Shown one piece after another: positions 9,101 to 31,245 of a stretch of 32,731 nt of DNA. The translations under genes were made by a program, and so were the position numbers. The stretch comes from a virus: the IMG/VR virus record IMGVR_UViG_3300046517_000187, positions 1-32,731 of that record; one strand, 5' to 3'. Numbering within the stretch: position 1 is the stretch's first letter; each line of letters opens with the position of its first letter. The notes beneath the pieces were generated by a model. That model had not been told where the DNA came from. It was given only the letters and a program-made list of their open reading frames with translations, and ran no database searches.

Positions 9101-9721
9101 CTGCTCTGTCTGTTCAAAGTGATTGACTATAGCTGGATCAAGCCCATCAACGAAGCCAGCGTGACGCGACTTCTTACCTGTTCCCGGTCCCGGTAGTGCA
9201 CTAGTAGGACGCTCAGTGCGTACATTAGGTCTAATGCCTTTAGTAGCAACAGGTGGTGCTTGTGCATATGCATCGCGAGCTTCATCACTCACGTTGCGAG
9301 ATGAGAAGTCTGTGCTATCGCTTGTACCTTGTACCTCTGACAGCTTACCACTTGGTAGTATAGGTGTAGTACCTAGTGGTGCTGAGCTAGGCTGTGGTTG
9401 ACGTGCTGCTGGAGGTGGTGCAGCTTGCGGTGGTGGTGTATCTCTAGCATCAGCCTCTGCACCTAGTCTAACACGGTTGCCATCAGGTCCAGTAGGATCA
9501 GGTTGTGTACCACCATATGCTAGACGCTTATCAAGCATCTCATTCTGTAGAGCAGCACCACGCTCAAACATCTCACGCTTGAAGTCTTCGCTATCACGTC
9601 CCTCATTGTGCTTAGCAAGCAACGACACATACAGCCTAACGAGTGCTTCGTTAGCCGCAGCTTGGCGTGATAAGAAGAACGCACTCTGATCAGGTGCGCC
9701 ACCGGGGATCATCTTTGCCAT
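6101..9721 (-). CDS. Ejection protein with lytic transglycosylase-like and M15 peptidase-like domains (1206 aa)
   Basis: Predicted virion-associated peptidoglycan-degrading ejection protein. Residues about 190-300 look like a lysozyme-like transglycosylase: Y-G-L-P at 209-212, then the likely catalytic glutamate E223 in G-L-E-N-D-G-G, then a G-W-F-K-F segment in the place of the usual G-L-x-Q. Residues about 465-600 look like a zinc M15/VanY-type peptidase: H-S-R-G-Q-A-A-D gives the H516 and D523 ligands and M-H-Y-D-W gives H587. The rest is long Pro/Ala/Gln-rich linker (85-180, 370-465, 615-900, 1020-1206) with an Ala-rich helical segment near 905-965. The ATG is preceded at a distance by the end of the 343-aa gene, and the stop overlaps the next start by 4 bp. 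It probably opens the murein during DNA entry. The two domains are read from motifs, not from a search. Confidence 0.85.
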   Translation of the reverse strand: MAKMIPGGAPDQSAFFLSRQAAANEALVRLYVSLLAKHNEGRDSEDFKREMFERGAALQNEMLDKRLAYGGTQPDPTGPDGNRVRLGAEADARDTPPPQAAPPPAARQPQPSSAPLGTTPILPSGKLSEVQGTSDSTDFSSRNVSDEARDAYAQAPPVATKGIRPNVRTERPTSALPGPGTGKKSRHAGFVDGLDPAIVNHFEQTEQKYGLPRHTLMTLFGLENDGGRNAQREGRVEGWFKFTDELAKEHGLNPNDRQDIYKMADVTAQNLIRNNMELKRINKGQGLSSDPADIPRWGILHQFGHTNGPLFLVAHQLNPNMPATAAMRQNKDPNVNYRTLVNNGLDPTATVDALVKRQAGYYVPWTNEAFKLAGDRPVATRPTATTNTGVPSTAVEQNINDANTPPLMQRAPVKPKPQSAIPGGDAYAQAQGGEAGSERPFGTRTQQETQTSASSASTPPRPPANIPVLHNARALVGVNRRLVDAVRGGAELALPPGYIVRAVSGREGRTDSRSYHSRGQAADFQIIKPNGEAIPHKGEDTTGLYTRLARGVKSWVQENDPSAERSIGYGGAFGTQIGGGGVPDLMHYDWGGSRGRMRPEVQFARLQPLQAHERNTEPRTRLAGPPPAKEAPVAKPLPKLPPGVVRAEYNKYEPDKLPHTPAEGYTPAGQLPPTHFGPQAANTATMDAFGNFTDTKAFGNKRIGIAPPAEAAILARSGGPELEMPMPPSRPITESGDLERGTPADTLPPDPNFADSADSTLTSALPRPNTQRPIQADAPFGEQPPQAPEQSAVDKQLDMQYEEPPARTPLDVPKDMAPDEAKNVPIDDGLNALDVPMPRMDPRKVVPDVPDIAYQDAASANATPGGPAGADMLSHPPVPLPLPKPPAPRRLPWQAIKEDVPPTLQSIKDAIFGVPSAISGAGSHIAGNAAHLKQDVGDVASSVADAARSGAATASDVAGVVGEQAGRYNTMVDSRQQELERLGAFIKENYGKYRDAVQQNVPTIDVNRGPSLNPQPDARYKGALPPQPNAVEDEDAPPVSAEELKKRISGAIFSEGGSEYKPETPDYAASIQKIKEWVARKMAPSPAQPAQPPPKPATAAPAKPADPNVFVPPKMMKDGVTPWLPNTKPHHIPPAKKTGENLLDITGQPAAQPGAAPTNIPPAPGKKPIPNAEVGFTIGPDGRFRPVLQPQQQQAPVDEIQPAETE

Positions 9722-10794: not shown

Positions 10795-11907
10795 TTAGAA
10801 GGTGCCTTCATTCGCCCGCACATTCTCATTGTTGCGTGTGGCTTCGTTAGCGAAGGTGTCGAACAATGCATTAGTGCCACTGGTGCCAGTAGTCTGATTG
10901 CCTACACGTGCATTGGCCTTGCCAAGCAACGAGTTGACATCGAAGAACTCCTTGCCACCTACTGCACCACGTAGTTCACCTTCAAGACCAGCTTGTCTAT
11001 CGCTGCCATACGACTTGATACGATTAGCCTCACCCATTGGATCGAAGGTAGAGCCAAAGTCCCAGTTCGCAGCGTTGTCAAGTGCACTGGTACGACGAGT
11101 ACCAATGTCACCGATGATCTTCTCACGTACACCGCGACCAGTGTTCTGCAACTCAGTGTTAGCAGTAGACTTAGCAGTACCAAGCTCACGCAGTGCACGG
11201 TCGTAGACACTGCTGCTAGCCTGACCACGATCACGTGCTGCATTCAAGTCAGTGAGTGCATCACCGTACTGCGTGTCGAGGATAGATGATAGGATTGCAT
11301 CATCCGACGTATCACCAAATGTATCTTCACCGTAATATTGTGGGAGATCTTGGTTGAATGCAGTCTTGTACTTGTTACGCTGTCCGCTACGTGCAGTGCC
11401 TAGTACTTCGTCAAGGATGGTAGGATTGAATGACGACGAGTAGTCTGCACCTGTAGCTAGATTGCTGTTAGCTTGGTTGATGCGACTAGTGAAATCACTG
11501 TATGCACCATACGGATCGTTAGCTTCAATCCCCAAGCCCTTCAACCTATTTGTACCACTCTGCAACGCGGTGTTGTATGCTGCGTTCTTGCTAGCCAACC
11601 ACGTAGCATCGTCATTAGTCTTCTTGTCAGCAGCAGCTTTATCAAGTCGATCCTGTGCCGCTTGATCACGTGTAGCTTGCTGCTGCGCCTCCCAATCACG
11701 AGCTTCAGCTTGCTCCTGTGGTGTAGGTGTAGGAGGCGGCTGATAACCACCACCACCCTTTGTCTCTAGTACAACCTCGTCAGGCTTGTGCTTAGCCTTC
11801 TTCGGCTTGTCATTGATGTTCGACACGTGAGTGGCAACAACCGCCGCCACATCAGTGTTAGACTTGCGCTTGTTCAGCGCCCACGCTGCGATGTGTGGAG
11901 CGATCAT
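10795..11907 (-). CDS. Predicted virion protein with charged coiled coil (370 aa)
   Basis: No family recognised. Residues 30-45 are Lys-rich. A Gly/Pro-rich hinge follows at 50-63, and a Gln/Asp/Ala/Lys-rich segment at about 63-97 is very likely coiled coil. The remainder is rich in Asn, Thr, Gly and Asp with repeated short helices and no hydrophobic stretch long enough for a membrane span. The ATG has GAGGA eight bases upstream and lies 50 bp inside the end of the GNAT-like gene, a longer overlap than elsewhere in the block. Its place between the GNAT-like protein and three ejection proteins suggests a structural role, probably an internal or tail-associated protein. There is no evidence for an enzyme. 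Confidence 0.6.
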   Translation of the reverse strand: MIAPHIAAWALNKRKSNTDVAAVVATHVSNINDKPKKAKHKPDEVVLETKGGGGYQPPPTPTPQEQAEARDWEAQQQATRDQAAQDRLDKAAADKKTNDDATWLASKNAAYNTALQSGTNRLKGLGIEANDPYGAYSDFTSRINQANSNLATGADYSSSFNPTILDEVLGTARSGQRNKYKTAFNQDLPQYYGEDTFGDTSDDAILSSILDTQYGDALTDLNAARDRGQASSSVYDRALRELGTAKSTANTELQNTGRGVREKIIGDIGTRRTSALDNAANWDFGSTFDPMGEANRIKSYGSDRQAGLEGELRGAVGGKEFFDVNSLLGKANARVGNQTTGTSGTNALFDTFANEATRNNENVRANEGTF

Positions 11908-12400
11908 TGTCCTTGTCCTCGTTGTTTATAACCTTTACACAGATGTAGCCTTGCTTCTTATAGCCCATTGAAGTCATCAGTCTAAGTATACGTTCAGTCA
12001 GCATCTCGTCGTGATCGTGTTCGACCTGCATGTAGATGCGCTCAGCATTGCGCTCTAATGCCCACTTCTCGAACTCATGTAGCAACATCAACCCAGCGAA
12101 CGATCTACGTGCATGAGGCAACACATACCACATCTCTTGTATGGCGTAGTTGCGCGTGCTGAACATGCTCTGTCGCATGGTAGCAACCATGTAGCCGACA
12201 GGCACGTTGTTGATGTCATACGCAACCCAGCCGTTAATGTACTTGCGTTGCTTGTCCATCACGCATACGAACACATGCTTACCAATCTCACGTGCATCGA
12301 AGGCACGACCGCAGCCGTGCTCGTTGTTACAATGCGTAGCAACGTCCTCGATGTCATTAGCATCGCGTGGTGTCTCGACCTGACGAACAGTGATCTTCAT
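11858..12400 (-). CDS. GNAT-fold N-acetyltransferase-like protein (180 aa)
   Basis: Resembles the GCN5-related acetyltransferase fold. Around residues 90-115 the sequence Y-V-L-P-H-A-R-R-S-F-A-G-L matches the beta4/alpha3 acetyl-CoA loop (R/Q-x-x-G-x-G/A), although the second glycine is replaced. It is followed by a helix and an R-I-Y-M-Q-V strand. An early C-N-N-E-H-G-C-G segment is unusual. I place the start at the ATG giving M-K-I-T-V because it forms an ATGA overlap with the stop of the 56-aa membrane protein. An in-frame start further upstream would run back through that gene. T7-like phages often carry a protein of this fold near the ejection genes (compare T7 gp13), so it may be a virion assembly protein rather than an active enzyme. 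The substrate is unknown. Confidence 0.7.
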   Translation of the reverse strand: MKITVRQVETPRDANDIEDVATHCNNEHGCGRAFDAREIGKHVFVCVMDKQRKYINGWVAYDINNVPVGYMVATMRQSMFSTRNYAIQEMWYVLPHARRSFAGLMLLHEFEKWALERNAERIYMQVEHDHDEMLTERILRLMTSMGYKKQGYICVKVINNEDKDNDRSTHRSVGAEQAQV

Positions 12401-12567
12401 GAGTGGATGACAAACCCAAATGCGTGCCACCCTAGCAAGAACAGCAGCACGAAGAACAAGAACTCGCTCGCATACAGGTACGGCCCAGTCAGACCACCCC
12501 AGCGTGTACCGATCCATGAGAAGAACCACAGGATCATGAGTACCCAGAACAGCAGACCTATAGACAT
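12397..12567 (-). CDS. Small two-span membrane protein (56 aa)
   Basis: A short gene between the TM/coiled-coil protein and the GNAT-like protein. It starts with M-S-I-G-L-L-F-W-V-L-M-I-L and ends with G-F-V-I-H-S. Two hydrophobic segments (about residues 4-20 and 35-53) are joined by a short loop containing T-R-W-G-G. The ATG is preceded by GAGG with a 7-base spacer, and the TGA overlaps the next ATG as ATGA. Perfect packing into the gaps on both sides and clean membrane-protein composition make it very likely real. Small two-span proteins of this kind are common in phages of this type. A holin or accessory lysis role is possible, but nothing in the sequence proves it. Confidence 0.82.
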   Translation of the reverse strand: MSIGLLFWVLMILWFFSWIGTRWGGLTGPYLYASEFLFFVLLFLLGWHAFGFVIHS

Positions 12568-13388: not shown

Positions 13389-16298
13389 TCAACCTGCCTC
13401 AGAGTTGTAGTAGGCAGCAGTCGCGTGTACTTGCAACAACCTATAGCGTGCTACCCATGCGTAGTATGCACTAAGACCTGTCATGCCTGTAACAGCAGCA
13501 ATACCCCACGGCTCATTAAGGCCGCTCTGATTGCCGTGGTCAACGTCACCTACATACACAAGGCGTGTGTTGATAACAATGTCACTTACATCTTGTGCAG
13601 TCCACAGCTTGTACCACGTAGCACCTAATGACCAGCCACCAACACGCAGTATGTTGTCACTGCCAAGGCCGAAGTTGACAGCGAATGAACCTGCGTTGTG
13701 GAAGCTCAACCCTGCTGTATAACCAGTAGCACTCTGTATCATCATCGGCATTGGGCCGCCTTGATACAGCCATGCCGGATATTGACTGACGTTGAAGGTG
13801 CTATTCGTCGTAGCTACACCAGCGACATTCAGTGCACCATTGATATTTGCTGCTGGTGCAACGATTGTATGAGTGAAGTTGAATGTGCCATTGTAGTGTA
13901 TGTAAGCACCCGCGCTATTGCCGAAGTAGACAAGACCCTCTGGTGCATTGCCAGGACGAGTCGTCATCATGTCAGCGGTAGCAGTTACACGCCCGTTGAC
14001 GGTGATGCTACCGCCATTGAGGGTATATGCTGTACCATCAAATGTTAGATACTTAGTACCAGTGTTACCGAAGCGCAGCGTACCAGTTGTACCAGCATAA
14101 CCAACAACTAACTCAGGACTCCTAACGTACCACCCACCACCATTCACTGTATAATTTGCGCCGTCATACTGTATACTAGCACTGCCATTGCCGAAGCGAT
14201 ACGTGCCACCTGCACCACTAAAGCCAGCGTACACATCGCCGTTAGATATAAGTTTCTGTGCGATTGTATTGCCAACACTATCAATGCGTAGACGTTCAAC
14301 ACCACCAGCTCCAGACGAGTCACCAGTCTTGAAGCTGAATGCTAGAGGAACATGTCCAGCAGACACAGGACCATCAACGACAGCACATACTGATGCAGAT
14401 GATGGACGGAATGCAGTACCATCATGCCCACTGATAGCTATACCCCACGGCTCAGTGCCTTGTGTAATAGCAGCAGGTGCGGCCTTAGTACCAAATGCTT
14501 GACTGATGTAGTCCCAATAACCGTAATTCACTGACCCTGTGTATAGATACGCTTCACCATATAGTAGACCCTTAGTCTCCACACCAATAGTACGACGAGC
14601 ATCACCGTCAGTGACTTCTGTGATGGTTTGAACTGGCCCACCTAGATGAGCTTGAGTGAATGTAGACTTACCACTGCTATCAATGCGTAGACGGTCAACG
14701 CCACCATCTACACTGCCAGTACAGAACTGCAATGACATCGGGACAGCGCCAACTACCACCGGACCATCGACAAACGCATTGATGGCAGCACCACTCGCCC
14801 AATCGCCACCATCATTAGCGTTATAAAATGTAGTACCAATCATTGTACCTTGGGTGACAGGAGCAGGCGTAGACATTGTTCCTTTTGAGCGAGCAAGACA
14901 ATGTGTTGCTGTTGCAGCGTTGTCAAACACAGTCTCCTCAAACCATGCCCATGTCGGACTATAAGAGAGCGACCCCATAAGGCTATCGCTAACTTCAAGA
15001 AATGCGCCGGGGAAAGGAGCAGCACCAGTAGGATTAATGGCAAGCGCACCTGTCATCGTGTCGCCAGCTTTATTGACCTTGCCAGCGAGTGCAGCAGACG
15101 TACCACTCTCCAAGTAAGCTTGAGTTACTGCGTGCTGTGGTTGTGTAGGATCAGCGAGTAGCACTTGATTGAACGTCACAACCTGTCCAGCACCTACACC
15201 TAAGTTATTGCGTGATGTGCCGATGTTAGCAACATCACTCAAGTTAGCACTACGCAGCATGTCACCAGTGCCACTACCAGTGCCACCAGTATTACCAGTG
15301 CGTGCGAAGCCTACTGTCGTCTCCTCACCAGCTAGAACGAGTCCATTCTGTGATAAGAACGTAACGTCAAACTCGACCCACGTGGTGTGATCGACAGCAG
15401 TACCGATGATATTGAAGATGAAGAAGTTGTCAGGGAAGCCTAGCTTGCGTACATAGATAGTACCCTTGACAGGTATACTCGTACTATCATCCCATGTCAT
15501 CAACCACTGTTGGACATTCGGATTACCGCCGTCAGCAGACCTACCACTGATTGACAACTTAGTAGCAAGTGCAAGGTTGGCGTTGTTGTACTTCTGATTG
15601 CCTGTGCCGGGGTCAGACACAGTGGCGTCGTTAATCAGATGCCACTTGAATGCGCCTTGAGCAGACAACGCATTGTCAGCAGACGTATGAGCAGCATCAG
15701 CAGAAACCTGTGCAGCATCAGCCGATATGTCAGCCGCAGTTGCTGACGCCGCAGCATTAGCTTCTGAGATGTCAGCAGCAGCCGCAGATGCAGCAGCATT
15801 CGCCTCTGACAACGCCGCCGCATTGACTACAGCAGTAGCATCGAATATGACGACCCACATGGCAGGGTCGAATGCTGCTGTGGATGTGTGTGCAGTAGCA
15901 CATAGATAGTAAGTATACGGTGTATAGTGTACAATGTCGCCGCTGTCGTATGCTACACCACTTGACCATGCCCCACGGTAGATAGGCACAGCTTCAATTA
16001 GGTGCGCCCAGTATGTAGGATGTAGTAACCGATCTTCTGCGAATGAACCAGTAGCAGCACTCAGATGTCCTTCTTGACACCTGTATATGAGATTGTCATC
16101 AACATCAATAACACGCTCACCTTCGATGTAAGCAGTAGCATTAGTCCATTCACCCTTAACATGTGATAGACCAGCCTGCGTCAACAACGCATCAAGCAGC
16201 GTCCAGTTGGAATACTCAAGTGTATGCCAACGAGGTGTGTCGAAGTTAATAAGCTTGAAGTCGTAATTAGGAGTGAAGCCGCGTATGTTGGCTACCAT
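13389..16298 (-). CDS. Tail fibre protein (969 aa)
   Basis: Host-recognition tail fibre. Order of parts (numbered from the chosen ATG): a short attachment region with the G-F-T-P-N-Y-D-F-K-L pattern (1-45); two modules resembling CBM5/12 chitin-binding folds (about 46-100 and 105-153), each with Y-x-x-G-x-x-V and a closing Trp; an Ala-rich coiled coil (156-214); A-D-P-T-Q-P-Q-H-A-V-T and K-A-G-D-T-M-T-G phage-fibre motifs (about 380-415); two tandem copies of a module ending in R-L-R-I-D-S (about 470-545 and 600-675); three F-G-N/Y-x-G beta repeats; and a C-terminal E-P-W-G-x-A-x-V-T-G-M-T-G segment typical of fibre tips. The ATG at 16298 has GGTGG upstream. An in-frame GTG at 16379 lies inside a promoter and is less likely. 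Confidence 0.9.
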   Translation of the reverse strand: MVANIRGFTPNYDFKLINFDTPRWHTLEYSNWTLLDALLTQAGLSHVKGEWTNATAYIEGERVIDVDDNLIYRCQEGHLSAATGSFAEDRLLHPTYWAHLIEAVPIYRGAWSSGVAYDSGDIVHYTPYTYYLCATAHTSTAAFDPAMWVVIFDATAVVNAAALSEANAAASAAAADISEANAAASATAADISADAAQVSADAAHTSADNALSAQGAFKWHLINDATVSDPGTGNQKYNNANLALATKLSISGRSADGGNPNVQQWLMTWDDSTSIPVKGTIYVRKLGFPDNFFIFNIIGTAVDHTTWVEFDVTFLSQNGLVLAGEETTVGFARTGNTGGTGSGTGDMLRSANLSDVANIGTSRNNLGVGAGQVVTFNQVLLADPTQPQHAVTQAYLESGTSAALAGKVNKAGDTMTGALAINPTGAAPFPGAFLEVSDSLMGSLSYSPTWAWFEETVFDNAATATHCLARSKGTMSTPAPVTQGTMIGTTFYNANDGGDWASGAAINAFVDGPVVVGAVPMSLQFCTGSVDGGVDRLRIDSSGKSTFTQAHLGGPVQTITEVTDGDARRTIGVETKGLLYGEAYLYTGSVNYGYWDYISQAFGTKAAPAAITQGTEPWGIAISGHDGTAFRPSSASVCAVVDGPVSAGHVPLAFSFKTGDSSGAGGVERLRIDSVGNTIAQKLISNGDVYAGFSGAGGTYRFGNGSASIQYDGANYTVNGGGWYVRSPELVVGYAGTTGTLRFGNTGTKYLTFDGTAYTLNGGSITVNGRVTATADMMTTRPGNAPEGLVYFGNSAGAYIHYNGTFNFTHTIVAPAANINGALNVAGVATTNSTFNVSQYPAWLYQGGPMPMMIQSATGYTAGLSFHNAGSFAVNFGLGSDNILRVGGWSLGATWYKLWTAQDVSDIVINTRLVYVGDVDHGNQSGLNEPWGIAAVTGMTGLSAYYAWVARYRLLQVHATAAYYNSEAG

Positions 16299-16369
16299 TT
16301 CAACGCCACCATATGATGATGTGGCGATGAAGCCGACGCGATTTGCCGCTTTGTGATAATATAGCAAGC

Positions 16370-16398
16370 TATATAGCACATTTCTTTAATCCTGTCAA
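16370..16398 (-). promoter_or_regulatory. Leftward sigma70-like promoter before tail fibre
   Basis: The -35 box is TTGACA (16393-16398) and the -10 is TATATA (16370-16375), with a 17-base spacer. It lies in the gap after the tubular B stop and reads into the fibre gene with a leader of about 65 bases. The 16 bases GTGTAAGCTATTGACA covering the -35 and its upstream edge are identical to those at 30795-30810. The promoter also argues that the fibre starts at 16298 and not at the GTG at 16379. Confidence 0.6.
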
Positions 16399-20976: not shown

Positions 20977-21927
20977 TTAGTCGTTGACAACTGCGTGTGT
21001 GCGATACTGCTTCCACGTGCAGAACTGGCACTGCGTGATGACACGTTGTCCGTAGCCGTCAATCGTCCACGGTGCAGTGAGGTCAACATTCTTCATGTTG
21101 TTGTCACCGAGGATGTGAAGGCGCAGATACGTGTCGTTGAGGAAGTAGGCACGATCAACAGGGCAACTCTCATCATAGATGATCGGTACACCGTTGTGGC
21201 TGATGCCGTCGAAGCCTAAGTCCATCATTCTCTTACCAGCACCAGTGTTGTTGAGCGGGATGGTAAGCTTGCTGCGAACAGCAGCGCGATACAGGCGATA
21301 GTGGTTACGACCTGAGATGATGACCTTGGGACGCTCTGTACCCTGTTTGAGATCAAGTAGTACGTCGTCGTATGCTTCTTCGATGTTCGTAGCGTTGAGA
21401 GTACCTGCGAAGTCATAGGACGAAGAACGCCACTGCACTTCTGCTGCACGATCCACACCGGCAAGAGAACCAGTAGTAGGATCATCAGGTATGAGAAGTG
21501 CCAAGCCATTCGGGTCGTTGCCACCACCGAGGCCATACAAGTAGCCGCTGAACTTCTCCTTGATTGAGAGTTCAAGAGCTTCAAGCTTGCCCTGTAGCAA
21601 CTTAACTGCCGCCTGTTCACCTTTATTCTCGTCTTCCTCTTGATTAGAGATGATCACCGTACCAGCAATACGTGACCACCTGTATTCAAGCTTGATGAAC
21701 TCTTGCGTTTGCTGGACGGGGAGGGAGTCGTAGTAGCTATAGCTGCCCACTGTCGGATTGCGACCAGTCAACAGGGGGTTAGTGATGTTGTAACCGCTGC
21801 TCTCATTCTCAATGCGGTCACGTGCGAAGCACCACGCCATGAGCGCATTGCTCTGCATAGCGGCGACGATGAGCTTCTTACGTGAACGCTCAATCGTCGT
21901 TGCCAAGATGTTTTGAAGTACAGGCAT
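20977..21927 (-). CDS. Major capsid protein (316 aa)
   Basis: Shell-forming capsid protein, most likely of the HK97 fold. Supported by position directly after a scaffold-like gene and portal, by length, and by features of phage capsid proteins: a helical N-terminus, a Y-N-I-T-N-P-L-L-T-G-R-N-P loop, a long helix with E-D-E-N-K-G-E-Q-A-A-V-K-L-L-Q, a G-L-G-G-G-N-D-P-N-G-L turn, and an A-P-W-T-I-D-G-Y-G-Q-R C-terminal strand. No separate protease gene or cleavage domain is visible nearby. The call rests on context plus general similarity; exact family placement needs a profile search. Confidence 0.85.
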   Translation of the reverse strand: MPVLQNILATTIERSRKKLIVAAMQSNALMAWCFARDRIENESSGYNITNPLLTGRNPTVGSYSYYDSLPVQQTQEFIKLEYRWSRIAGTVIISNQEEDENKGEQAAVKLLQGKLEALELSIKEKFSGYLYGLGGGNDPNGLALLIPDDPTTGSLAGVDRAAEVQWRSSSYDFAGTLNATNIEEAYDDVLLDLKQGTERPKVIISGRNHYRLYRAAVRSKLTIPLNNTGAGKRMMDLGFDGISHNGVPIIYDESCPVDRAYFLNDTYLRLHILGDNNMKNVDLTAPWTIDGYGQRVITQCQFCTWKQYRTHAVVND

Positions 21928-22999: not shown

Positions 23000-25324
23000 T
23001 TATGCGGCAGCGCCGCTTTGCATCTGTTGCATCATCTGCGTAGCTATTTCAGCTACACTCTTGCCACGCGCTAGTTGCACACCTAGTGACTGCTTTATCT
23101 CAGGTGGCAAGCCGTCGATAAGTCCAGCTACTTCTTGCACTATTGAAGCGATGTCGTCAATCTGTGGCATACCGCCACCTTGCCCACCACCACCCTGTGC
23201 ACCCTGCGCCTGACCACGCGCTTTCATAGCTTCGACTACCATCTCTTGCTTACGGTCAGCACCTTGCTGTGCACCGTCTTGTTCCATCTGCTGTTGTTGT
23301 ACATCAGTAGGAGCAGGTGCAGAAGCTTCCTTCATTATGCCCTTGTATATCAATTCCCAGTCTTCTTTACTCACAAGCACGTTGTCGAACGCAGCGGCAA
23401 GCACTTTCAATGAGACTACTGCTGCAATCGGCGTAGCACGTGTGAATTGGCCTATGACTTGTGAGATTTGGAGTGCTTGTTCCTTCTTCGCACGTGAAGT
23501 CGGCTTAAGAGTGCTACCACCTACTACACGCGGCGTGAATTTGGTGCGAATTGTCAGTGGATCGAAGTTTTCCCAATCCTCTGCGAACTTATCACCCAAA
23601 AGACCAGCTACTTCTTCTTTAGGCATGAATTGTATGACCATTTGCGCTGTCAACCAGAGGATTGTGCCTACACTGTCCTCGATTGCGTCCATTTTCTCGT
23701 CAGCGCGTGTCTGAACCTGACTTTCGTAGCTCTCGATGGCGCGGTTTGTGGTGTTTGTCTTGTATTCTACACCACGTTGTACTGATGCTACGCCAGATAG
23801 ACGGTCGATTGCATCTAGTACGGGCTTTTTGTCGAAAAACTTGATCGCTTCTGCGCTAGGTGGCAGCAATGGGCCAAGTACGTCACCTATCTTCTTGCCT
23901 TCAGGTAGATCAAGGCCAATGACGTTGGTATCCATCGTGCCATTGATGATACCTTCAAGCAACGACGTGTCCTTTAGGCTATTCTTGTCATATGCAAGCT
24001 TGCCAGCAGCAAATTTACGTACCTTCGCCCACTCATTGTTGATAATGTTAATGTCGTCTTGTTGGTCGAGGTAGTAGGTGACTTCTCCTTTAGCATACAT
24101 TGTAATAGGGTCGGTATGAAACTCCATTGGTACAACCGAAAAGAACTGGTCAAGGTGGTAGGGATCATCCCAAACCCACAAGGGATAACACCAGTCATTG
24201 CAGTTGTAGAGTTCAACACGACGAGTAACTTTGTCCCAAACATAGACCACCTTCGTCATCTGTGCAGCTAAGAATGACTTCTGATCGCTGTATCCGTACT
24301 TGGCGTATTCGCTTGTACTGTAACTAAAGAGTTGGAAGTTGTCCGTCTGACCACGCTCACCCTGATCTGGCGATACTCCTGCTTTAATAACATTCGTAGG
24401 TGAGAATACACTTTCCCATTCATCGCTATCTGGCTTCTTTCTCCCATAGCGAGCGCGAAGAAGTGAAGTGTACATGAGGTCTTCAATCATCACCCAATTG
24501 CAAGCACCGCTAAGATCTAACTCTGTAGCTGTAGGATCGACTATGATCTGATCAGGTCTACGCACCTTACACCACGGACCTGATGGTGTGAGCATGTCGA
24601 TTGTATCTTCCAACGCAAGCAGCTTACCTTCAGTCTCTTTGATGTCCTTCTGCGACTTAGCCTTCTCTAGTTCACCAGCTAGCCGCTGTATCTCCTCAAG
24701 TGCTTGCTCACTGCTATTCTGCTTGAGCGTGTAGCCGACTTCAAACCAGCCCACGTTGCATAGTGTAGTGCTGACGATATTACGCTTGACCTTACGCTTC
24801 AGGTTCAGTCCCGGTGATGTCTTCTTAGCTGCGAGCACATTGACCAGCTTCTCGATGATACGTGCGCGTGGTTCATCTTCTTTATCTTCAACTGTGAACT
24901 CCGCATCCGGGTTCTTCGTAAAGAGCATAGGGACGAGTGCGGATACGTTAGCGAACACGATGTTCTCTGTGCTATTGAACTCACCCTGCATAGGTGTACC
25001 AGCGGTGGTGTCGTTGTCACCATGTCGATTGCTCGCACCTTGGCGTGTGTGATCGTGGCGATAGTAGCGATATGCTTCGTTCCATGCATCTAGCTGCTTA
25101 GACATTGCGGACTTGCCTTGGTCATAGCGACTACGCCACAAGGGTCCGCGGTGCTTGCTGACAGGTATCTTGCTCTCACCTATGACGCGGTAGATGGGCA
25201 TGTCATCTACAGGTGCGCCATCAGGTGCCATCACGCCTTCATACGAGTTGAACGCTGCACCGTCTTGATCGGTGGCGTCAGACGCACGTGGCGTTGTTAG
25301 TGGATCGTTGTAGTCATCAGCCAT
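23000..25324 (-). CDS. Portal protein (774 aa)
   Basis: Dodecameric portal through which DNA enters and leaves the head. Directly after the large terminase (8 bp overlap) and before the scaffold. Seen: A-N-V-S-A-L-V-P-M-L-F-T-K-N-P near residue 127, typical of large podoviral portals; a coiled-coil insertion at about 203-245 (Glu/Lys/Leu-rich); a W-V-I-E-D-L region near 278; and a long helical part with A-I-E-S-Y-E-S-Q-V near 540. The Gln/Gly-rich tail (about 685-725) includes several glycine runs and ends with a helix that may project into the head. At 774 residues it is larger than T7 gp8 (536 aa) and closer to P22-like portals. Confidence 0.87.
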   Translation of the reverse strand: MADDYNDPLTTPRASDATDQDGAAFNSYEGVMAPDGAPVDDMPIYRVIGESKIPVSKHRGPLWRSRYDQGKSAMSKQLDAWNEAYRYYRHDHTRQGASNRHGDNDTTAGTPMQGEFNSTENIVFANVSALVPMLFTKNPDAEFTVEDKEDEPRARIIEKLVNVLAAKKTSPGLNLKRKVKRNIVSTTLCNVGWFEVGYTLKQNSSEQALEEIQRLAGELEKAKSQKDIKETEGKLLALEDTIDMLTPSGPWCKVRRPDQIIVDPTATELDLSGACNWVMIEDLMYTSLLRARYGRKKPDSDEWESVFSPTNVIKAGVSPDQGERGQTDNFQLFSYSTSEYAKYGYSDQKSFLAAQMTKVVYVWDKVTRRVELYNCNDWCYPLWVWDDPYHLDQFFSVVPMEFHTDPITMYAKGEVTYYLDQQDDINIINNEWAKVRKFAAGKLAYDKNSLKDTSLLEGIINGTMDTNVIGLDLPEGKKIGDVLGPLLPPSAEAIKFFDKKPVLDAIDRLSGVASVQRGVEYKTNTTNRAIESYESQVQTRADEKMDAIEDSVGTILWLTAQMVIQFMPKEEVAGLLGDKFAEDWENFDPLTIRTKFTPRVVGGSTLKPTSRAKKEQALQISQVIGQFTRATPIAAVVSLKVLAAAFDNVLVSKEDWELIYKGIMKEASAPAPTDVQQQQMEQDGAQQGADRKQEMVVEAMKARGQAQGAQGGGGQGGGMPQIDDIASIVQEVAGLIDGLPPEIKQSLGVQLARGKSVAEIATQMMQQMQSGAAA

Positions 25325-26912
25325 AGCGATGAGCCTTTGAGTTAGTCTTCGTCTTGTCGTTCTCTTGCCACATCATGTAGCTAGGCACACGTTCTTCTGC
25401 GGCTATCTGATACTTGCCGATGTCAGGCATGTCACCTAGCAAGTACTTGGTTGTATCCATCGCATGATCATTGCGATCTATCGGCTTGTCAATGCGTTCA
25501 CCAGAAGTAGATTGCTGCCAGAAGTAACCAGCAACTTCATCTGTCCACCAGTCAAGCTTGGCGTTGATAAATAAGCGAGGTGATCCTGCAACACGATTGA
25601 TGGGGTGTAGCAGTGTACGATTGACGTTGAGATAAGAACCAACCTTAACAATGCCGTTGTTGACATCATTGTTGCCACGCTTCATGTAGATGCCGTCGTC
25701 TTTGAACATGTCAGCTATAGTCTTACCGACTGTGCGCTTGTTGATTGTCTTGCGACCGAAGATGCTAGGATCAGCTTGTATCTTGTGCATCTCGTCAATC
25801 TCAACCATCCACTCCTTACGTATACGCCGTATACATGAAATCTGCTCATCAAGCGGCATCTCTTTCTTGTGAAAGCCATCGCATATGATGACATGCGACT
25901 CCGGTGTGACGAACGCTAGGATGTAGCAGGAGGCTTGAGCTTGCCCGTAATCGTATGCCTCAATCCAGTTAGGTTGATAATGTGTATCAACGTAGCCGTC
26001 AAACAGCGAATGTATGTTCCCTTCTTGCAGTAGATGCACCGCTGCGTCGTACTGCGGATAAACAAGTCCTTCGTAAGCCACCCATTTACCGAGTAAGAAC
26101 CTATCCCGCTGTTGACCTTGATACATCGTCTCAAGGGTTTGGATGAAATCACCGCCTTCAGCTTCGTGAACATGTCGTAGTTCATATGTGCTGCCCTCTA
26201 TGACCTCGATGAGTAGTTGCGGCTTACCATCGTGTAGTACGGGCTTACGATCAACGTCACGTGCACAGATCAAGTCATCAGTGATCATACCTGTTGCCTT
26301 ATATTGGGCAAGCGGTCTCACTAACTTTGTATACACCCAGTTGCCAGTTGGATTGCATGTCAACATCATCCAACGTGGCCCAGTGACAGGCATCGTACCA
26401 TCATCACCTACATAGCGTGCGCGACCACGTAGACGACCGAACAAGTCGAGGAAGTCCTTATGTGTTATCTCCGGGTCTTCGACTTGATCCACTATCACCC
26501 AATCGAACGTCGCCGAAAGCAAATTCGAGCTGCTGCTCTCCGTCTTTGTGCCCTGTTGTGCTATGTACCTGAAGTAGATTGTCGTCCCGTTCTTTAGATG
26601 ACAGATGTTGTCGCCATTCTGCCCTACGGCGAATGATACTATCCATGTGGGGGGACACCATTTCTGGAACTCCTTACGTATAGTGTCATTCAACTTGGGA
26701 TAGGTTGAGCGTGATATGAGTCCTACACTACCGGGGTACATGTCGCTTAGTTGCAGTGCCTTGATGACAGCGGCAGTAGTCTTACCATTGCCGAAGCCCC
26801 CGCCGTAGACTTGCACCTTCGCCTTGCTATGCAGAAAGCGATCCTGCAAGCTGCCCTCTTTGAGTAGCAACTCAGGTCGCTCAGCTACATTGATAGTGCG
26901 TGTGCGTGCCAC
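25317..26912 (-). CDS. Terminase large subunit (531 aa)
   Basis: DNA-packaging motor: ATPase plus nuclease. Walker A is G-G-F-G-N-G-K-T at about residues 38-45. Walker B is W-V-I-V-D-Q-V-E-D at about 138-146, with Gln where many have Glu next to Asp. The coupling motif is L-T-C-N-P-T-G-N near 184-191. Nuclease acidic residues are probably D321 (E-A-Y-D-Y-G), D381 (A-D-P-S) and D482/D486 (N-D-H-A-M-D). The start is a GTG: AAGGAG lies five bases upstream, and no ATG occurs in frame before Walker A. It begins one base after the stop of the 55-aa lipoprotein gene. Length fits the family well. Confidence 0.95.
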   Translation of the reverse strand: MARTRTINVAERPELLLKEGSLQDRFLHSKAKVQVYGGGFGNGKTTAAVIKALQLSDMYPGSVGLISRSTYPKLNDTIRKEFQKWCPPTWIVSFAVGQNGDNICHLKNGTTIYFRYIAQQGTKTESSSSNLLSATFDWVIVDQVEDPEITHKDFLDLFGRLRGRARYVGDDGTMPVTGPRWMMLTCNPTGNWVYTKLVRPLAQYKATGMITDDLICARDVDRKPVLHDGKPQLLIEVIEGSTYELRHVHEAEGGDFIQTLETMYQGQQRDRFLLGKWVAYEGLVYPQYDAAVHLLQEGNIHSLFDGYVDTHYQPNWIEAYDYGQAQASCYILAFVTPESHVIICDGFHKKEMPLDEQISCIRRIRKEWMVEIDEMHKIQADPSIFGRKTINKRTVGKTIADMFKDDGIYMKRGNNDVNNGIVKVGSYLNVNRTLLHPINRVAGSPRLFINAKLDWWTDEVAGYFWQQSTSGERIDKPIDRNDHAMDTTKYLLGDMPDIGKYQIAAEERVPSYMMWQENDKTKTNSKAHRYG

Positions 26913-27081: not shown

Positions 27082-27296
27082 CGTATATTCGTTTCAATCC
27101 ACGACGTAGTACCAGTAGCAAGTGCACGATACACTTCACCTGTCGTTGTGTTGAGTGCCATCTGTGATGCGAATGTAGACACACCAGCAGGTACACCTGC
27201 ACCTACGATGGTAGGCACTTCGTAGCTAGGATCAACTGCACCATATATGCCGTTAACTTTGATGCCTTGTCCGTCCTTGTTAGCTACAATAGCCAT
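27078..27296 (-). CDS. Small virion-like protein (72 aa)
   Basis: No family recognised. Gly/Val/Thr-rich, apparently all beta: G-I-K-V-N-G-I-Y-G-A, V-P-T-I-V-G-A-G-V-P-A-G and a C-terminal T-T-S-W-I-E-T-N-I-R. This resembles small repeat-type structural or tail-tip-like domains more than a regulator. The ATG at 27296 makes TGATG with the stop of the terminase small subunit gene and has GGAG seven bases upstream. A GTG one codon earlier has poorer spacing. It is co-translated with the lipoprotein downstream (ATGA). Function unknown. Confidence 0.6.
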   Translation of the reverse strand: MAIVANKDGQGIKVNGIYGAVDPSYEVPTIVGAGVPAGVSTFASQMALNTTTGEVYRALATGTTSWIETNIR

Positions 27297-27934
27297 CACT
27301 TGTCTCCTTTGATCGGTGTCACGTCGATTGTAGGCATATGCTTAGGTGCAGCTATCTCACGTATATGTCGTATAACGAGGCCACCCTCCAAGGAATGACG
27401 ATGCTCCATTACCTGCTTAGGACTAAAGCCACCGCGATCTAGCATGTTCATTGCTATGCGAGCCTTAGTTGCAGGTCTAGTCTCCTCATCTTCTAACAAG
27501 TCCTCAAGCTTATCTAGCGCGCCAGCAGACATGCCGTCGATGCGCTTCTGCACGTTGTCAGCAGTCAACGCAGCTAGGTTGTCACGTAGTAGGATGTCCA
27601 ACTGCCCGAACAGTTGTAGTCCTTTGATCATGTCAACTTGACTGATCTTCAAGCCTGTAGCATCAGCTATCTCAGCGTCATTGATACCTAGGTTGTAGTA
27701 TAACCAAACAACACCAGCCGTAGTCACTGCCTTTGTATCAGCCGGAAGATCAATAAGACCACGACGAATGGCACGGTTGTTGCGATCACGACCTCGTACA
27801 ACAGTAGCTTCTTTCGTTTGCTTAGTCTTTGTCGTTTGTTGCTGTATAACGCTATCTGGCGACGTGTTAGGTAGTATCGCCTGACCCGTCGTAGTGTCGA
27901 TGATAAGTCCATTTGCTAATGGTAGATCAGTCAT
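27296..27934 (-). CDS. Probable terminase small subunit (212 aa)
   Basis: Predicted DNA-recognition subunit of the packaging motor. Residues about 72-105 form a plausible helix-turn-helix (W-L-Y-Y-N-L-G-I-N-D-A-E-I-A-D-A-T-G, then a recognition helix). Residues 110-165 are helical and may oligomerise. The C-terminus has basic and His-rich segments (M-E-H-R-H-S). It lies two short genes upstream of the large terminase; in most phages the two are adjacent. The ATG overlaps the preceding stop as TAATG. The call combines the helix-turn-helix with position. A transcription regulator is the main alternative. Confidence 0.62.
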   Translation of the reverse strand: MTDLPLANGLIIDTTTGQAILPNTSPDSVIQQQTTKTKQTKEATVVRGRDRNNRAIRRGLIDLPADTKAVTTAGVVWLYYNLGINDAEIADATGLKISQVDMIKGLQLFGQLDILLRDNLAALTADNVQKRIDGMSAGALDKLEDLLEDEETRPATKARIAMNMLDRGGFSPKQVMEHRHSLEGGLVIRHIREIAAPKHMPTIDVTPIKGDK

Positions 27935-28764
27935 TACGTGCGCGGTCCACGCTTCACACCCGTCTGTGCTACACCACGGTCCTTAGCCGCAGCGTCACGA
28001 TACATCTGCCTAATCATATCCTGATTAGTGCCTTTGGTAGCTTTAGCTGTAACAGTAGGTGACGCAGGGCCGCTCATACGCGGACCGCCACCAGCGGGAC
28101 CACGCAGCTTCGGACCACCGGGGATGTCACCACCGAGTGATGCACTTATAGCTGCATCCATTCCACCACCACCCATCGGTACACCCGCTGGCATTCCTCC
28201 ACGTGGCATAGCACCACCTCCTGTCTTACTGCTGATGATCTGTTGAGCTTTAGCCATGTCCTCTGGTGTAGGCATACCACCAGCACCACTACCGGGGCCT
28301 TGTCCTTGCATGTCAGCAGGGGAGCCTTGTGCTTGTGCTTCCATGCCTTCATACTCAGCATCAGGATCAGCTTGTGTACCTTCTTCAGGTGACGCTTCTT
28401 CATTAGAGGCGGGGGATGCTGAACCCGTTGGCTCTGGTGGTGGGGCAGGACCACCTTCATCCCCCGCAGCAGCGTCAGTGGGTCCGCCGTCACCACCTTC
28501 ACCGCTAAGCTGACCAGCACTATCTTCGATCCAAGCTTTAGATGCTGCAACTAATTCATCAGGGTCTACTTCCTGACCTGTCAACTGCGAGATAGCTTGC
28601 GCCGCTTGTTCAGGTGACATCTGTGCAAGCTGTGCCATCAAGTTGGTGACATCACTACCACTCATGCCTTGCATCATCTGCATGAGTTGTTGTTGCATCT
28701 CAGGTGGTATAGATGCAGGCATAGCCTGACCACCACCCATCTGTACTTGTGCTTCATCGGGCAT
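27934..28764 (-). CDS. Low-complexity Met/Gln/Gly/Pro-rich acidic protein (276 aa)
   Basis: No family recognised. Residues 1-90 are Met/Gln/Ala-rich and helical (M-Q-Q-Q-L-M-Q-M-M-Q-G-M, Q-A-A-Q-A-I-S-Q-L). Residues 90-160 are acidic and disordered (Gly, Glu, Asp, Pro, Ala). Residues 160-235 are Gly/Met/Pro-rich, and the last 40 are basic with R-Q-M-Y-R-D-A-A-A-K. The start is placed at the ATG at 28764 because AAAGGA precedes it and it begins just after the upstream stop. The acidic middle with a basic tail recalls scaffold-like or DNA-mimic proteins, but a proper scaffold gene already exists. A virion or assembly role is a guess from position. Confidence 0.55.
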   Translation of the reverse strand: MPDEAQVQMGGGQAMPASIPPEMQQQLMQMMQGMSGSDVTNLMAQLAQMSPEQAAQAISQLTGQEVDPDELVAASKAWIEDSAGQLSGEGGDGGPTDAAAGDEGGPAPPPEPTGSASPASNEEASPEEGTQADPDAEYEGMEAQAQGSPADMQGQGPGSGAGGMPTPEDMAKAQQIISSKTGGGAMPRGGMPAGVPMGGGGMDAAISASLGGDIPGGPKLRGPAGGGPRMSGPASPTVTAKATKGTNQDMIRQMYRDAAAKDRGVAQTGVKRGPRT

Positions 28765-28768
28765 AATA

Positions 28769-29065
28769 CTAGTCCTTTGGAATGTTGAAGCTACCATCAG
28801 GATTTATAGTGACTGCGCGCTTACGTGGTTGTGGTGCATATGGTTCGCTGTACTTATCACGCATAGCTGCACGTTCAAATTGCTGTTGTATATCCTCACC
28901 ACGTTGACGTTCTTCTCCTTCAGCCCTCATACGCATTGACGTTGCAGCACGTGGATTACGTGCTATGAACTCAGGTGACGGTGATGGTTTATTAAGGTTC
29001 ATCATGTTGTCTATGATGTCTTCTATTGAACGACCATCAACATCAGCACTTACGTCATCGGGCAT
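28769..29065 (-). CDS. Small charged helical protein (98 aa)
   Basis: No family recognised. It contains R-S-I-E-D-I-I-D-N-M-M-N-L-N-K, a Pro/Ser turn, and a strongly charged Arg/Glu/Gln helix at about residues 40-75, ending with N-P-D-G-S-F-N-I-P-K-D. The ATG at 29065 has GGAG six bases upstream. It overlaps the end of the predicted ADP-ribosyltransferase gene by 11 bp, so the two are co-translated. The tight pairing could mean a partner or chaperone of that enzyme, but nothing in the sequence shows binding. Confidence 0.55.
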   Translation of the reverse strand: MPDDVSADVDGRSIEDIIDNMMNLNKPSPSPEFIARNPRAATSMRMRAEGEERQRGEDIQQQFERAAMRDKYSEPYAPQPRKRAVTINPDGSFNIPKD

Positions 29066-30305
29066 GTGCTTCTCCACCGCTACCAGCTACCATCCCTGCA
29101 CCTGTACCAAGGACACCAGCACCTATAGCGAATTTGTTGATGATCTTGAGTATGTCTGTATCACTCACAACGTGGTTGTATGTAGGAGTAGGCTTAGTGA
29201 CTTTATATTGCTCAGCTTCGGCAGGGCGAGCACGTAGCATGTTATTCATATGACGCTGGGCATCGTCTTCAGTTCTAAACGTCATACGCTGTGCTGGATC
29301 ACCTGAGATGTGTTCCATTGCGAATGGCTTGTGCAGTAGATCATATGACCCTTGATCTAGATAGCGTATACCCGGTATGCCAGCCCCTTGCAGTTGCTCT
29401 GATGCATGTTGTCTAGCTTCACCGGGTGTACTAGCACCTGCACGGTGTAGCCTACCATACATGTTACGACCTGTGGCATCAGGTGTGAACACTTGGTTGT
29501 ATGCAGTGTTCGATGGATGAATAGTTCGCAATGCTTCTTGAACGTATGGTGATTGTTTAGTGAGTGTCTTATCCCAATCTAGGAACTGTTCAGGTGCAGC
29601 GTTGATGTTCACTTCATATACATGTGCACCGACAGGCTTATCTGCTCTCAAGTGCTCGTATGCTTGTATACGGTTCCGTGCCAGAGCCGGTGTATCTGCT
29701 GGATGTTCTCTCATCAACATCTCAAGCGCACGCATAGCACGGTCTTTGTCGAAGTCTACCTTCTGCATGAAGCGCGTAGCAACGCCACGTGGTGACACTT
29801 CATCAGCTACACGTGGTGTGAACTCACGCCAGTACTCGCTCTTGTCAGGTCCGCTTACACGTGGGTTCTCAGCTAGATAGATACCACGCCCGTATGAGTT
29901 AGCACCTTGACCTGTACCTATCTTACTCATATCGAACTTGGTGAAGTCATGCGGCGAAGCGTGCCATGCACGTATACCCTTAGCACCTTTAACAATCGGC
30001 CTAGCGAATGGTATAGGCAGCATACCAGCCATACCAAGCGTCAACCCAACAGGATCGTGTGCCTGTGCAGCATCTACTACATCAGGCACACCACCCACAC
30101 CTGGGATGAAGCCGAACATATTCTCTGCTATGTCTTGCTGCATCTGTTGCATAGGGTCGTATACTTTAGGCATCATCTGCTTGATGATACCGGGTTGTTC
30201 AGGTCGCGGTGGTATATCAAAGGATTTAGGCAGCGGCTCCTTTAGCTTAGCAGCCGATACATCAATCCAATCATCATCAGCAGTAGTGCTGCTGTCTTCA
30301 GCCAT
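29055..30305 (-). CDS. ADP-ribosyltransferase-domain protein of the polyvalent type (416 aa)
   Basis: Residues about 108-150 read G-I-R-A-W-H-A-S-P-H-D-F, then I-G-T-G-Q-G, then Y-G-R-G-I-Y-L-A. This is the NAD-binding core of the ART-PolyVal family (canonical form Y-H-G-S-P...G-x-G-x-Y-F-A). H115 and Y138 or Y143 are the candidate NAD-contacting residues. The later G-I-P-G-I-R-Y-L-D (about 309-317) and H-V-V-S-D-T-D-I-L (about 378-386) match the usual C-terminal strands of the domain. The third catalytic residue is not clear. A hydrophobic Gly/Ala stretch near 392-408 could be a membrane segment. As second gene of the structural block, it may be packaged and injected to modify host proteins, like T4 Alt in principle. 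Target unknown. Confidence 0.78.
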   Translation of the reverse strand: MAEDSSTTADDDWIDVSAAKLKEPLPKSFDIPPRPEQPGIIKQMMPKVYDPMQQMQQDIAENMFGFIPGVGGVPDVVDAAQAHDPVGLTLGMAGMLPIPFARPIVKGAKGIRAWHASPHDFTKFDMSKIGTGQGANSYGRGIYLAENPRVSGPDKSEYWREFTPRVADEVSPRGVATRFMQKVDFDKDRAMRALEMLMREHPADTPALARNRIQAYEHLRADKPVGAHVYEVNINAAPEQFLDWDKTLTKQSPYVQEALRTIHPSNTAYNQVFTPDATGRNMYGRLHRAGASTPGEARQHASEQLQGAGIPGIRYLDQGSYDLLHKPFAMEHISGDPAQRMTFRTEDDAQRHMNNMLRARPAEAEQYKVTKPTPTYNHVVSDTDILKIINKFAIGAGVLGTGAGMVAGSGGEAHAR

Positions 30306-30730
30306 CAGTTGATCGTGCCAGCCTTACCACCACCACCATTACCAGACTTGTCAACAGGGTAGCCACTTGTTGCTACGTTAGGTGTAGCAGCAAGAGGCAT
30401 AGGCATGAAGTACGGCGTCATCTGCGACTGGAACGCCTCCTTCTCAACGATAGTAGTGTTGTGCTGTGGTACAACGTAGTAGTCAGCTACAGGACGTTGA
30501 CCACCTTGGTTCAACCCGTCAGCCTGTATAGCTGCAACCTGTTTGATTGACAACACAGTGCCAGCACCTACACCGTTAGCGAGTGCGCGGCCTATCTCAC
30601 CGAACGCTTGACCACCTGCTGATTGCGTGAGACGAGCTACACTACGCATCGTCGCAGTACCTTGCAGCATCGGTGCATAAGGTCCAGGTGTTACTGGTGC
30701 ATTATCCCAACCACCGGCCCATGACGGCAT
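30305..30730 (-). CDS. First gene of the structural block, unknown (141 aa)
   Basis: No family recognised. Gly/Ala/Pro-rich, with an R-S-V-A-R-L-T-Q-S segment and a moderately hydrophobic Gly/Ala helix (G-R-A-L-A-N-G-V-G-A-G-T-V-L) near residues 47-61. A C-terminal part contains several Met-Pro steps and a four-glycine run. Composition fits a minor virion protein. The ATG has AAGGAG seven bases upstream and a leader of a few tens of bases from the promoter at 30772-30800, so this is where leftward transcription enters the block. Its stop overlaps the next start as TGATG, coupling it to the ADP-ribosyltransferase gene. Confidence 0.6.
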   Translation of the reverse strand: MPSWAGGWDNAPVTPGPYAPMLQGTATMRSVARLTQSAGGQAFGEIGRALANGVGAGTVLSIKQVAAIQADGLNQGGQRPVADYYVVPQHNTTIVEKEAFQSQMTPYFMPMPLAATPNVATSGYPVDKSGNGGGGKAGTIN

Positions 30731-30873: not shown

Positions 30874-30902
30874 TTGCATCTACACGCTATATGTGATATA
30901 CA
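30874..30902 (+). promoter_or_regulatory. Rightward extended -10 promoter of short RNA unit
   Basis: TTGCAT (30874-30879), a 17-base spacer, then TATACA (30897-30902) preceded by TGA as an extended -10. The -35 part TTGCATCT is shared with the strong promoter at 32668-32695, which also has an extended -10. The only element downstream before the terminator at 30927-30978 is non-coding. Confidence 0.5.
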
Positions 30903-31140: not shown

Positions 31141-31245
31141 ATACCACATATAGTAGGTATGCGTCCAGCGCAGACTAGATGTAGTATGAACATTGCCATG
31201 CGTAGGGCGCATACCATGCACTGCGCGCATAGCTATATGTGGTAT
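31141..31245. repeat. Nested inverted repeats with pseudoknot-like order
   Basis: Outer arms ATACCACATATAG (31141-31153) and CTATATGTGGTAT (31233-31245) are a perfect 13-bp inverted repeat. Inside lie GGTATGCG (31156-31163) with CGCATACC (31208-31215), and GCGCAG (31168-31173) with CTGCGC (31221-31226), in the order B-C-B'-C', which as RNA could make a pseudoknot. A competing local hairpin, ATGCG/CGCAT, lies at 31198-31212. No coding frame here looks real. Confidence 0.75.

What the first reader, a model, noticed from the sequence alone, without database searches (positions are those of the whole stretch)
29055..30305. ADP-ribosyltransferase-like protein encoded as second gene of the virion block
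W-H-x-S-P-H-D-F, I-G-T-G-Q-G and Y-G-R-G-I-Y-L-A in order match the polyvalent ADP-ribosyltransferase family. Its place among virion genes, coupled to the first gene of the block, suggests it is packaged and enters the cell with the DNA. A target (host RNA polymerase, ribosome or a defence protein) would make it a take-over or anti-defence enzyme. The 98-aa protein overlapping its 3' end could be a partner.
Basis: partly seen in the sequence, partly recalled or inferred. Interest (0 to 1): 0.75.

Follow-up and report, generated by a model that had tools for sequence, protein, structure and literature searches.

The report
Phage ADP-ribosyltransferase beside head genes
The window's phage carries, at the front of its head-assembly genes, a predicted enzyme of the ADP-ribosyltransferase superfamily that many phages keep next to their portal gene and probably inject with their DNA; the enzyme class and this placement were already described, but the family is large and its members in other phages carry unexplained tags at their two ends.

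Summary
ORF 29055-30305 (minus, 416 aa) is the second gene of the head operon and overlaps the first by one base (TGATG). It is a divergent ADP-ribosyltransferase (ART) of the polyvalent-protein kind. The window protein alone matches nothing in Pfam, but 44 of 57 relatives match PF18760 ART-PolyVal (E<=0.01), and the nine best solved-structure matches of a compact relative's model, all weak, are ARTs. H115 and Y143 are essentially invariant. The third catalytic position is Asn (N377 in 100 of 104), not Asp/Glu. The family is large (at least 589 stretches in IMG/VR). In at least 26 loci its immediate neighbour is the portal gene; elsewhere it sits inside giant polyvalent proteins. Packaging and injection are plausible but not shown; the target is unknown. 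The '98-aa partner' is unlikely: a close relative (ART 86% identical) lacks it, apparently an indel between 11-base direct repeats. ARTs in polyvalent proteins and ARTs beside head genes are both published (Iyer 2017; the 2022 viral NAD/ADPr survey). New here: some relatives carry short motifs (MGxLA, VDHDPF) at both ends, partly shared with unrelated neighbouring proteins, which suggests a cargo tag. The window protein lacks them.

The parts
29055..30305 (-). 416-aa ART-PolyVal-type ADP-ribosyltransferase gene
   Evidence: ORF; relatives match PF18760; predicted ART fold
29982..30305 (-). N-terminal leader, residues 1-108, variable between relatives, mostly low-confidence in the model
   Evidence: alignment, AF2 pLDDT <50 for 1-52 and 60-107
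29121..29981 (-). ART core, residues 109-395, with a helical insert (about residues 167-222)
   Evidence: AF2 core mostly 80-97 pLDDT; conservation
29961..29963 (-). codon of H115 (first catalytic position, strand 1)
   Evidence: H in 104 of 105
29877..29879 (-). codon of Y143 (second catalytic position, YGRGIYLAE)
   Evidence: Y in 105 of 105
29175..29177 (-). codon of N377 (proposed third catalytic position, strand 376-380, Asn instead of Asp/Glu)
   Evidence: N in 100 of 104; DSSP strand; PF18760-type domain in L026 has Glu and in L081 Asn at the matching place, aligned by eye
29058..29135 (-). C-terminal Gly/Ala-rich tail after the last strand (KFAIGAGVLGTGAGMVAGSGGEAHAR), divergent form of the K-Y-G-[ILV]-A-G tail of relatives
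30305..30730 (-). first gene of the block, 141 aa, unknown function, 1-base stop/start overlap with the ART gene
   Evidence: 90% identical in L001
28769..29065 (-). 98-aa ORF overlapping the ART stop; absent from L001
29055..29065 (-). direct repeat ATGCCCGATGA, copy 1 (98-aa start / ART stop)
28754..28764 (-). direct repeat ATGCCCGATGA, copy 2 (start of the next gene)
   Evidence: single copy in L001 at 2177
27934..28764 (-). next gene, Met/Gln/Gly-rich protein of unknown function (ORF opens at 28797)
   Evidence: no Pfam/PHROG match
27296..27934 (-). 212-aa HTH protein, small-terminase candidate
   Evidence: weak HTH_23, E 0.036; position ahead of the large terminase
25317..26912 (-). terminase large subunit
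   Evidence: PF04466 and phrog_2
23000..25324 (-). portal protein candidate
   Evidence: weak PF16510 P22_portal, E 0.002
20977..21927 (-). major head protein
   Evidence: phrog_9953, E 5.6e-55

Best explanation
The gene encodes a stand-alone ADP-ribosyltransferase of the ART-PolyVal group. It is made late with the head proteins, taken into the head near the portal and delivered with the DNA, where it uses host NAD+ to mono-ADP-ribosylate (or otherwise act through NAD+ cleavage on) a host component early in infection, by analogy with T4 Alt. Shown here: the ORF, the ART-type fold prediction, near-invariance of H115, Y143 and N377 in relatives, purifying selection, and recurrent placement beside portal and terminase genes. 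Inferred: activity, packaging, injection. Unknown: the target.
For: Homology: 44 of 57 relatives match PF18760 at E<=0.01 and several exceed its cut-off. Fold: model of compact member L109 (pLDDT 88) has as its nine best PDB matches only ARTs: tankyrases, a bacterial toxin catalytic domain, RES toxins, PARP4, ParT (E 0.02-0.3); the window model matches viral ART-PolyVal-like models at E about 1e-16. Catalytic positions near-invariant. Purifying selection, dN/dS 0.12-0.27 across segments. Context: portal-like immediate neighbour in at least 26 loci, 18 upstream and 8 downstream (PHROG tallies), upstream genes mostly overlapping or within 10 nt. Fusions: same domain inside 1,100-3,300-aa proteins with PBECR nuclease, LPD, NUDIX/GNAT or histidine-phosphatase domains; in L093 with a peptidase-like region shared with the window's own 1206-aa late protein. 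Published precedent: PMC5512222 and PMC9503650.
Against: The window protein itself reaches no Pfam family. Foldseek to PDB is weak: TM about 0.4 for L109 and nothing significant for the window model. Third catalytic position is Asn, not the Asp stated for this clade. No virion proteomics seen; the data for phiGT1, whose gp5 is a homologue (31% identity over the core), lie in a supplementary table that could not be opened. Late-operon placement is also compatible with a non-packaged late function.
Confidence: 0.58

Rival explanations
1. Active ART that is not packaged: made late, it acts inside the producing cell, for example on terminase, portal or host factors to time assembly, or as a superinfection or lysis-timing factor.
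For: Same operon and timing as the head genes. PMC9503650 itself mentions a possible alternative in which these ARTs counter immunity directed at packaging components.
Against: Recurrent fusion of the domain into giant polyvalent proteins of the kind known or thought to be injected. Stand-alone relatives with tagged ends beside the portal fit cargo better.
Confidence: 0.22
2. NAD+-consuming enzyme without macromolecular target: hydrolyses or phosphorolyses NAD+ (as the RES toxins do) to starve or trigger the cell, or to blunt NAD-based defence signals.
For: H-Y-N at the active site; RES domains also have Asn at the third position and make ADPr-1''-phosphate (PMC9503650). RES structures are among the top fold matches.
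Against: RES domains have Arg, not His, at the first position (established knowledge). One ART-PolyVal-type domain (L081) also reads Asn at the matching place, so Asn does not by itself imply RES-like chemistry.
Confidence: 0.12
3. Degenerate ART fold kept as a structural minor head protein.
For: Third acidic residue lost; weak similarity of the window protein to the Pfam model.
Against: H115, P118, Y143, G139/G141 and N377 are near-invariant in very divergent relatives, which a purely structural role would not need; the gene evolves faster than TerL and portal (dN/dS 0.22 against 0.035 and 0.044).
Confidence: 0.06

Closest known systems
ART-PolyVal (Pfam PF18760), polyvalent-protein ARTs of Iyer et al. 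2017
   Same: HG/S-SP..F..FD start, G.G(L/I)YFA second motif, phage provenance, fusion into polyvalent proteins, late-gene context
   Different: Window protein itself not matched; relatives mostly match only about the first third to half of the profile; third catalytic residue Asn; stand-alone 416-aa protein
phiGT1 gp5 (QLB38217.1, Sulfitobacter phage)
   Same: Same domain (31% identity over residues 110-323), same length class (387 aa), two genes after the portal gene and two before the scaffold gene
   Different: Different phage lineage; has the YGIAG tail, which is divergent in the window version
T4 Alt
   Same: Works like: ART packaged in the head and injected to modify host proteins
   Different: R-S-E active site of another ART clade; different genomic place; packaging here is unproven
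RES-Xre toxins / ParT
   Same: Weak fold match; Asn at the third position
   Different: Arg first position, toxin-antitoxin context, no phage head genes

Membership tests
ADP-ribosyltransferase superfamily | split-sheet ART fold | tested here: met
   Top nine PDB matches of the L109 model are all ARTs, but E only 0.02-0.3 and TM about 0.4; window model matches viral ART-PolyVal-like models
ART-PolyVal (PF18760) | profile match above the curated cut-off | tested here: inconclusive
   Window protein: no match. Relatives: L011, L020, L009, L048 above the cut-off; 44 of 57 at E<=0.01
ART-PolyVal / HYD2 clade | His in strand 1 | tested here: met
   H115, 104 of 105
ART-PolyVal / HYD2 clade | Tyr in strand 2 | tested here: met
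   Y143, 105 of 105
ART-PolyVal / HYD2 clade | Asp (acidic residue) in strand 5 | tested here: not met
   N377 at the start of the strand, N in 100 of 104; placement by motif and DSSP only, coordinates were not at hand
Polyvalent effectors | several effector domains in one polypeptide | tested here: not met
   Window protein holds one recognisable domain; its relatives do occur in multidomain proteins
Virion-packaged injected effector (T4 Alt-like mode) | present in purified virions | not testable with these tools
   Only context evidence
Virion-packaged injected effector (T4 Alt-like mode) | encoded with head genes | tested here: met
   Head genes follow on the same strand; portal neighbour in at least 26 loci

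The most novel reading that the evidence does not exclude
Portal-adjacent ARTs belong to a modular cargo system of tailed phages: unrelated effector proteins share N-terminal leaders and short linear tags duplicated at both termini (MG-x-LA-x-QD-x-Y or V-D-H-D-P-F, often after a K-Y-G-[ILV]-A-G tail), which load them into the head or through the portal, much as encapsulin cargo peptides or the T4 capsid-targeting sequence do. The window's ART would be a member whose tags have diverged.
Probability: 0.3. Interest if true: 0.68.

Novelty: new member of a known kind. Interest (0 to 1): 0.42.

Why it matters
If packaged and active, this is a compact, single-domain, portal-linked example of the injected ARTs otherwise known mostly inside giant polyvalent proteins, so its target and chemistry (with Asn at the third catalytic position) could be tested with one small protein. 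The terminal tags seen in its relatives, if they direct loading, would give a sequence rule for predicting which phage proteins are injected; I know of no such general rule for short-tailed phages.

Tried and rejected
Single-sequence Pfam and PDB sequence searches of the window protein gave nothing; so did a profile against PDB sequences. Foldseek of the full-length window model against PDB failed, which I put down to floppy ends and the helical insert; a compact relative was folded instead. A transmembrane role of the N-terminal leader or C-terminal tail was tested by hydropathy and not supported: no 19-residue window reached 1.6, and leaders are no more hydrophobic than their shuffles. The link between the YG-tail and C-terminal position of the ART (70 of 75 against 5 of 28) is strong as counted but not shown to be independent of descent (only 2 pairs on supported branches). 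The 98-aa ORF as an obligate partner was rejected. The claim that Asn at the third position is unique to this family was dropped, since a PF18760 domain in L081 also reads Asn there. A sigma-70 promoter for the block was not found above chance. The terminal motifs MGxLA and DHDPF were searched for in the window and in the contig of L001 as DNA patterns: none.

Full report
Observation. The ORF at 29055-30305 (minus strand) encodes 416 aa. It is the second gene of an operon read leftwards. The first gene (30305-30730, 141 aa) has a strong AAGGAG site and its stop overlaps the ART start by one base, TGATG. Downstream on the same strand follow a 98-aa ORF, a Met/Gln/Gly-rich protein, a small-terminase candidate, the large terminase, a portal candidate and the major head protein. 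The record is a viral contig of 32,731 bases.

Is it an ART? The protein alone matches no Pfam family at E<=1 and no PDB sequence. Its relatives do: four phage records at 28-31% identity, 24 IMG/VR loci with the single-protein query, at least 589 stretches with a family profile and 21 bacterial genome loci, mostly in MAGs. Of 57 family members cut to the domain, 44 match PF18760 ART-PolyVal at E<=0.01; L011, L020, L009 and L048 exceed its cut-off. In most, only roughly the first third to half of the profile is matched, so the C-terminal half is divergent. The AlphaFold model of the window protein has a confident core with floppy ends and a helical insert; it matches viral models named ART-PolyVal-like at E about 1e-16 but no PDB entry. 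A compact 198-aa relative gave pLDDT 88, and its nine best PDB matches are all ARTs (tankyrases, toxin ART domains, RES toxins, PARP4, ParT), though each is weak (E 0.02-0.3). Taken together I consider the ART assignment very likely.

Active site. In 106 non-redundant sequences H115, P118, Y143, the two glycines before it, Y158, Y230, G312 and N377 are near-invariant. H115 and Y143 fit the His/Tyr of the polyvalent ARTs described by Iyer et al. 2017 (PMC5512222), who give an Asp in strand 5. Here the matching strand (376-380 by DSSP) begins with Asn in 100 of 104 sequences. The assignment of N377 to the third position rests on motif alignment, not on coordinates. Among PF18760-type domains, L026 reads Glu and L081 reads Asn there (by eye), so the position varies. 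RES-family ARTs also carry Asn (PMC9503650). Asn leaves mono-ADP-ribosylation, NAD+ hydrolysis and phosphorolysis all possible.

Context. Among 59 same-strand upstream neighbours and 52 downstream neighbours of non-redundant viral members, PHROG matches are led by portal families. Clustering to four portal seeds gives 18 upstream and 8 downstream portal neighbours, 26 distinct loci. Upstream genes usually overlap the ART gene or lie within 10 nt. The same domain also sits inside proteins of 1,100 to 3,300 aa, with a PBECR nuclease, LPD domains, NUDIX/GNAT or a histidine phosphatase. In L093 it shares a polypeptide with a region homologous to the window's own 1206-aa late protein 6101-9721 (31% over 161 aa, E 5e-11). 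The 2017 and 2022 surveys already conclude that phage ARTs sit near head genes and are probably packaged. The new case fits that picture; it does not prove it. Virion proteomics exists for phiGT1, whose gp5 is a homologue, but the table was out of reach.

The 98-aa ORF. In L001, whose TerL is 98% and ART 86% identical, the ART stop runs straight into the next gene and the 98-aa ORF is missing. The 11-mer ATGCCCGATGA stands at the start of the 98-aa ORF and of the next gene in the window and occurs once in L001. This looks like loss or gain between direct repeats, so the ORF is dispensable and not an obligate partner. The ART gene evolves under purifying selection but faster (dN/dS 0.22) than TerL (0.035) and portal (0.044), as expected for a gene in conflict with hosts.

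Tags in relatives. Where the ART is the last domain, the protein usually ends in K-Y-G-[ILV]-A-G and a short Gly/Ala-rich tail (70 of 75), against 5 of 28 where it is internal (the looser pattern used there also accepts the window's KFAIGAG); this could be descent. More striking, some members carry the same short motif at both ends: MG-x-LA (both ends in 5 proteins, 12 termini in all, against a mean of 0.63 in shuffled termini, none with both) and HDP[FWY] (8 termini, both ends in 2, against 0.05). In several near-genome-length records DNA matches to these motifs are few; in G028 (42.6 kb), G013 (41.1 kb) and G023 (34.1 kb) there are exactly two, at the two ends of the ART gene (positions converted with the contig ranges). 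Unrelated genes next to ARTs (L051, L056, L060) carry the MGxLA motif at both of their ends, and others (L064, L066, L067) at the C-terminus. A tail profile of ART proteins finds the C-termini of non-ART proteins in L051, L064 and L030 among its top four non-ART hits. N-terminal leaders of ART proteins in L008 and L073 are homologous to those of non-ART proteins beside ARTs in the same or other phages. I read this as a possible cargo-loading or delivery tag. The window protein lacks both motifs, so this is a lead about the family, not about the window.

Verdict. Observation confirmed; interpretation partly supported. New member of a known kind, with a divergent active site and a lead on cargo tags.

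Noticed in passing
L083:4638-5969, L073:4563-5825, L076:1296-2513, L061:4782-5912, L006:5599-7065: ART proteins with the motif MGxLA (often MG[AG]LAAQDxY) at both the N- and the C-terminus; shuffled termini never gave both.
   Followed up: partly
L085:4728-5975, L091:3346-4491, L079:4767-6164, L090:3069-4217, L003:2239-3447: A second terminal motif, V[DE]HDP[FWY], at the N-terminus, C-terminus or both of ART proteins; absent from the termini of 933 neighbouring non-ART proteins.
   Followed up: partly
L008:7041-8480, L051:4702-6516, L060:1069-2727, L064:5699-7684, L066:5861-7189: Non-ART neighbour family (some match DUF7178) that shares leaders and terminal motifs with ART proteins; may be a second packaged effector.
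   Followed up: partly
window 28754-29065: 98-aa ORF bounded by 11-base direct repeats ATGCCCGATGA, absent from close relative L001.
   Followed up: yes
window 6101-9721 (-): 1206-aa late protein with a peptidase-like region also found in L093 fused to the ART domain; possibly an ejection protein.
   Followed up: partly
window 11858-12529 (-): GNAT acetyltransferase (PF00583, E 5e-7) among the late genes.
   Followed up: no
window 30886-30895, 31145-31154, 31232-31241: Repeats of CACATATAG[CT] in the intergenic region before the head operon; possible phage-specific promoter or operator sites.
   Followed up: partly
window 13389-16379 (-): Tail-fibre-like protein with a carbohydrate-binding module match (CBM_5_12, E 1.5e-4, below the cut-off).
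   Followed up: no
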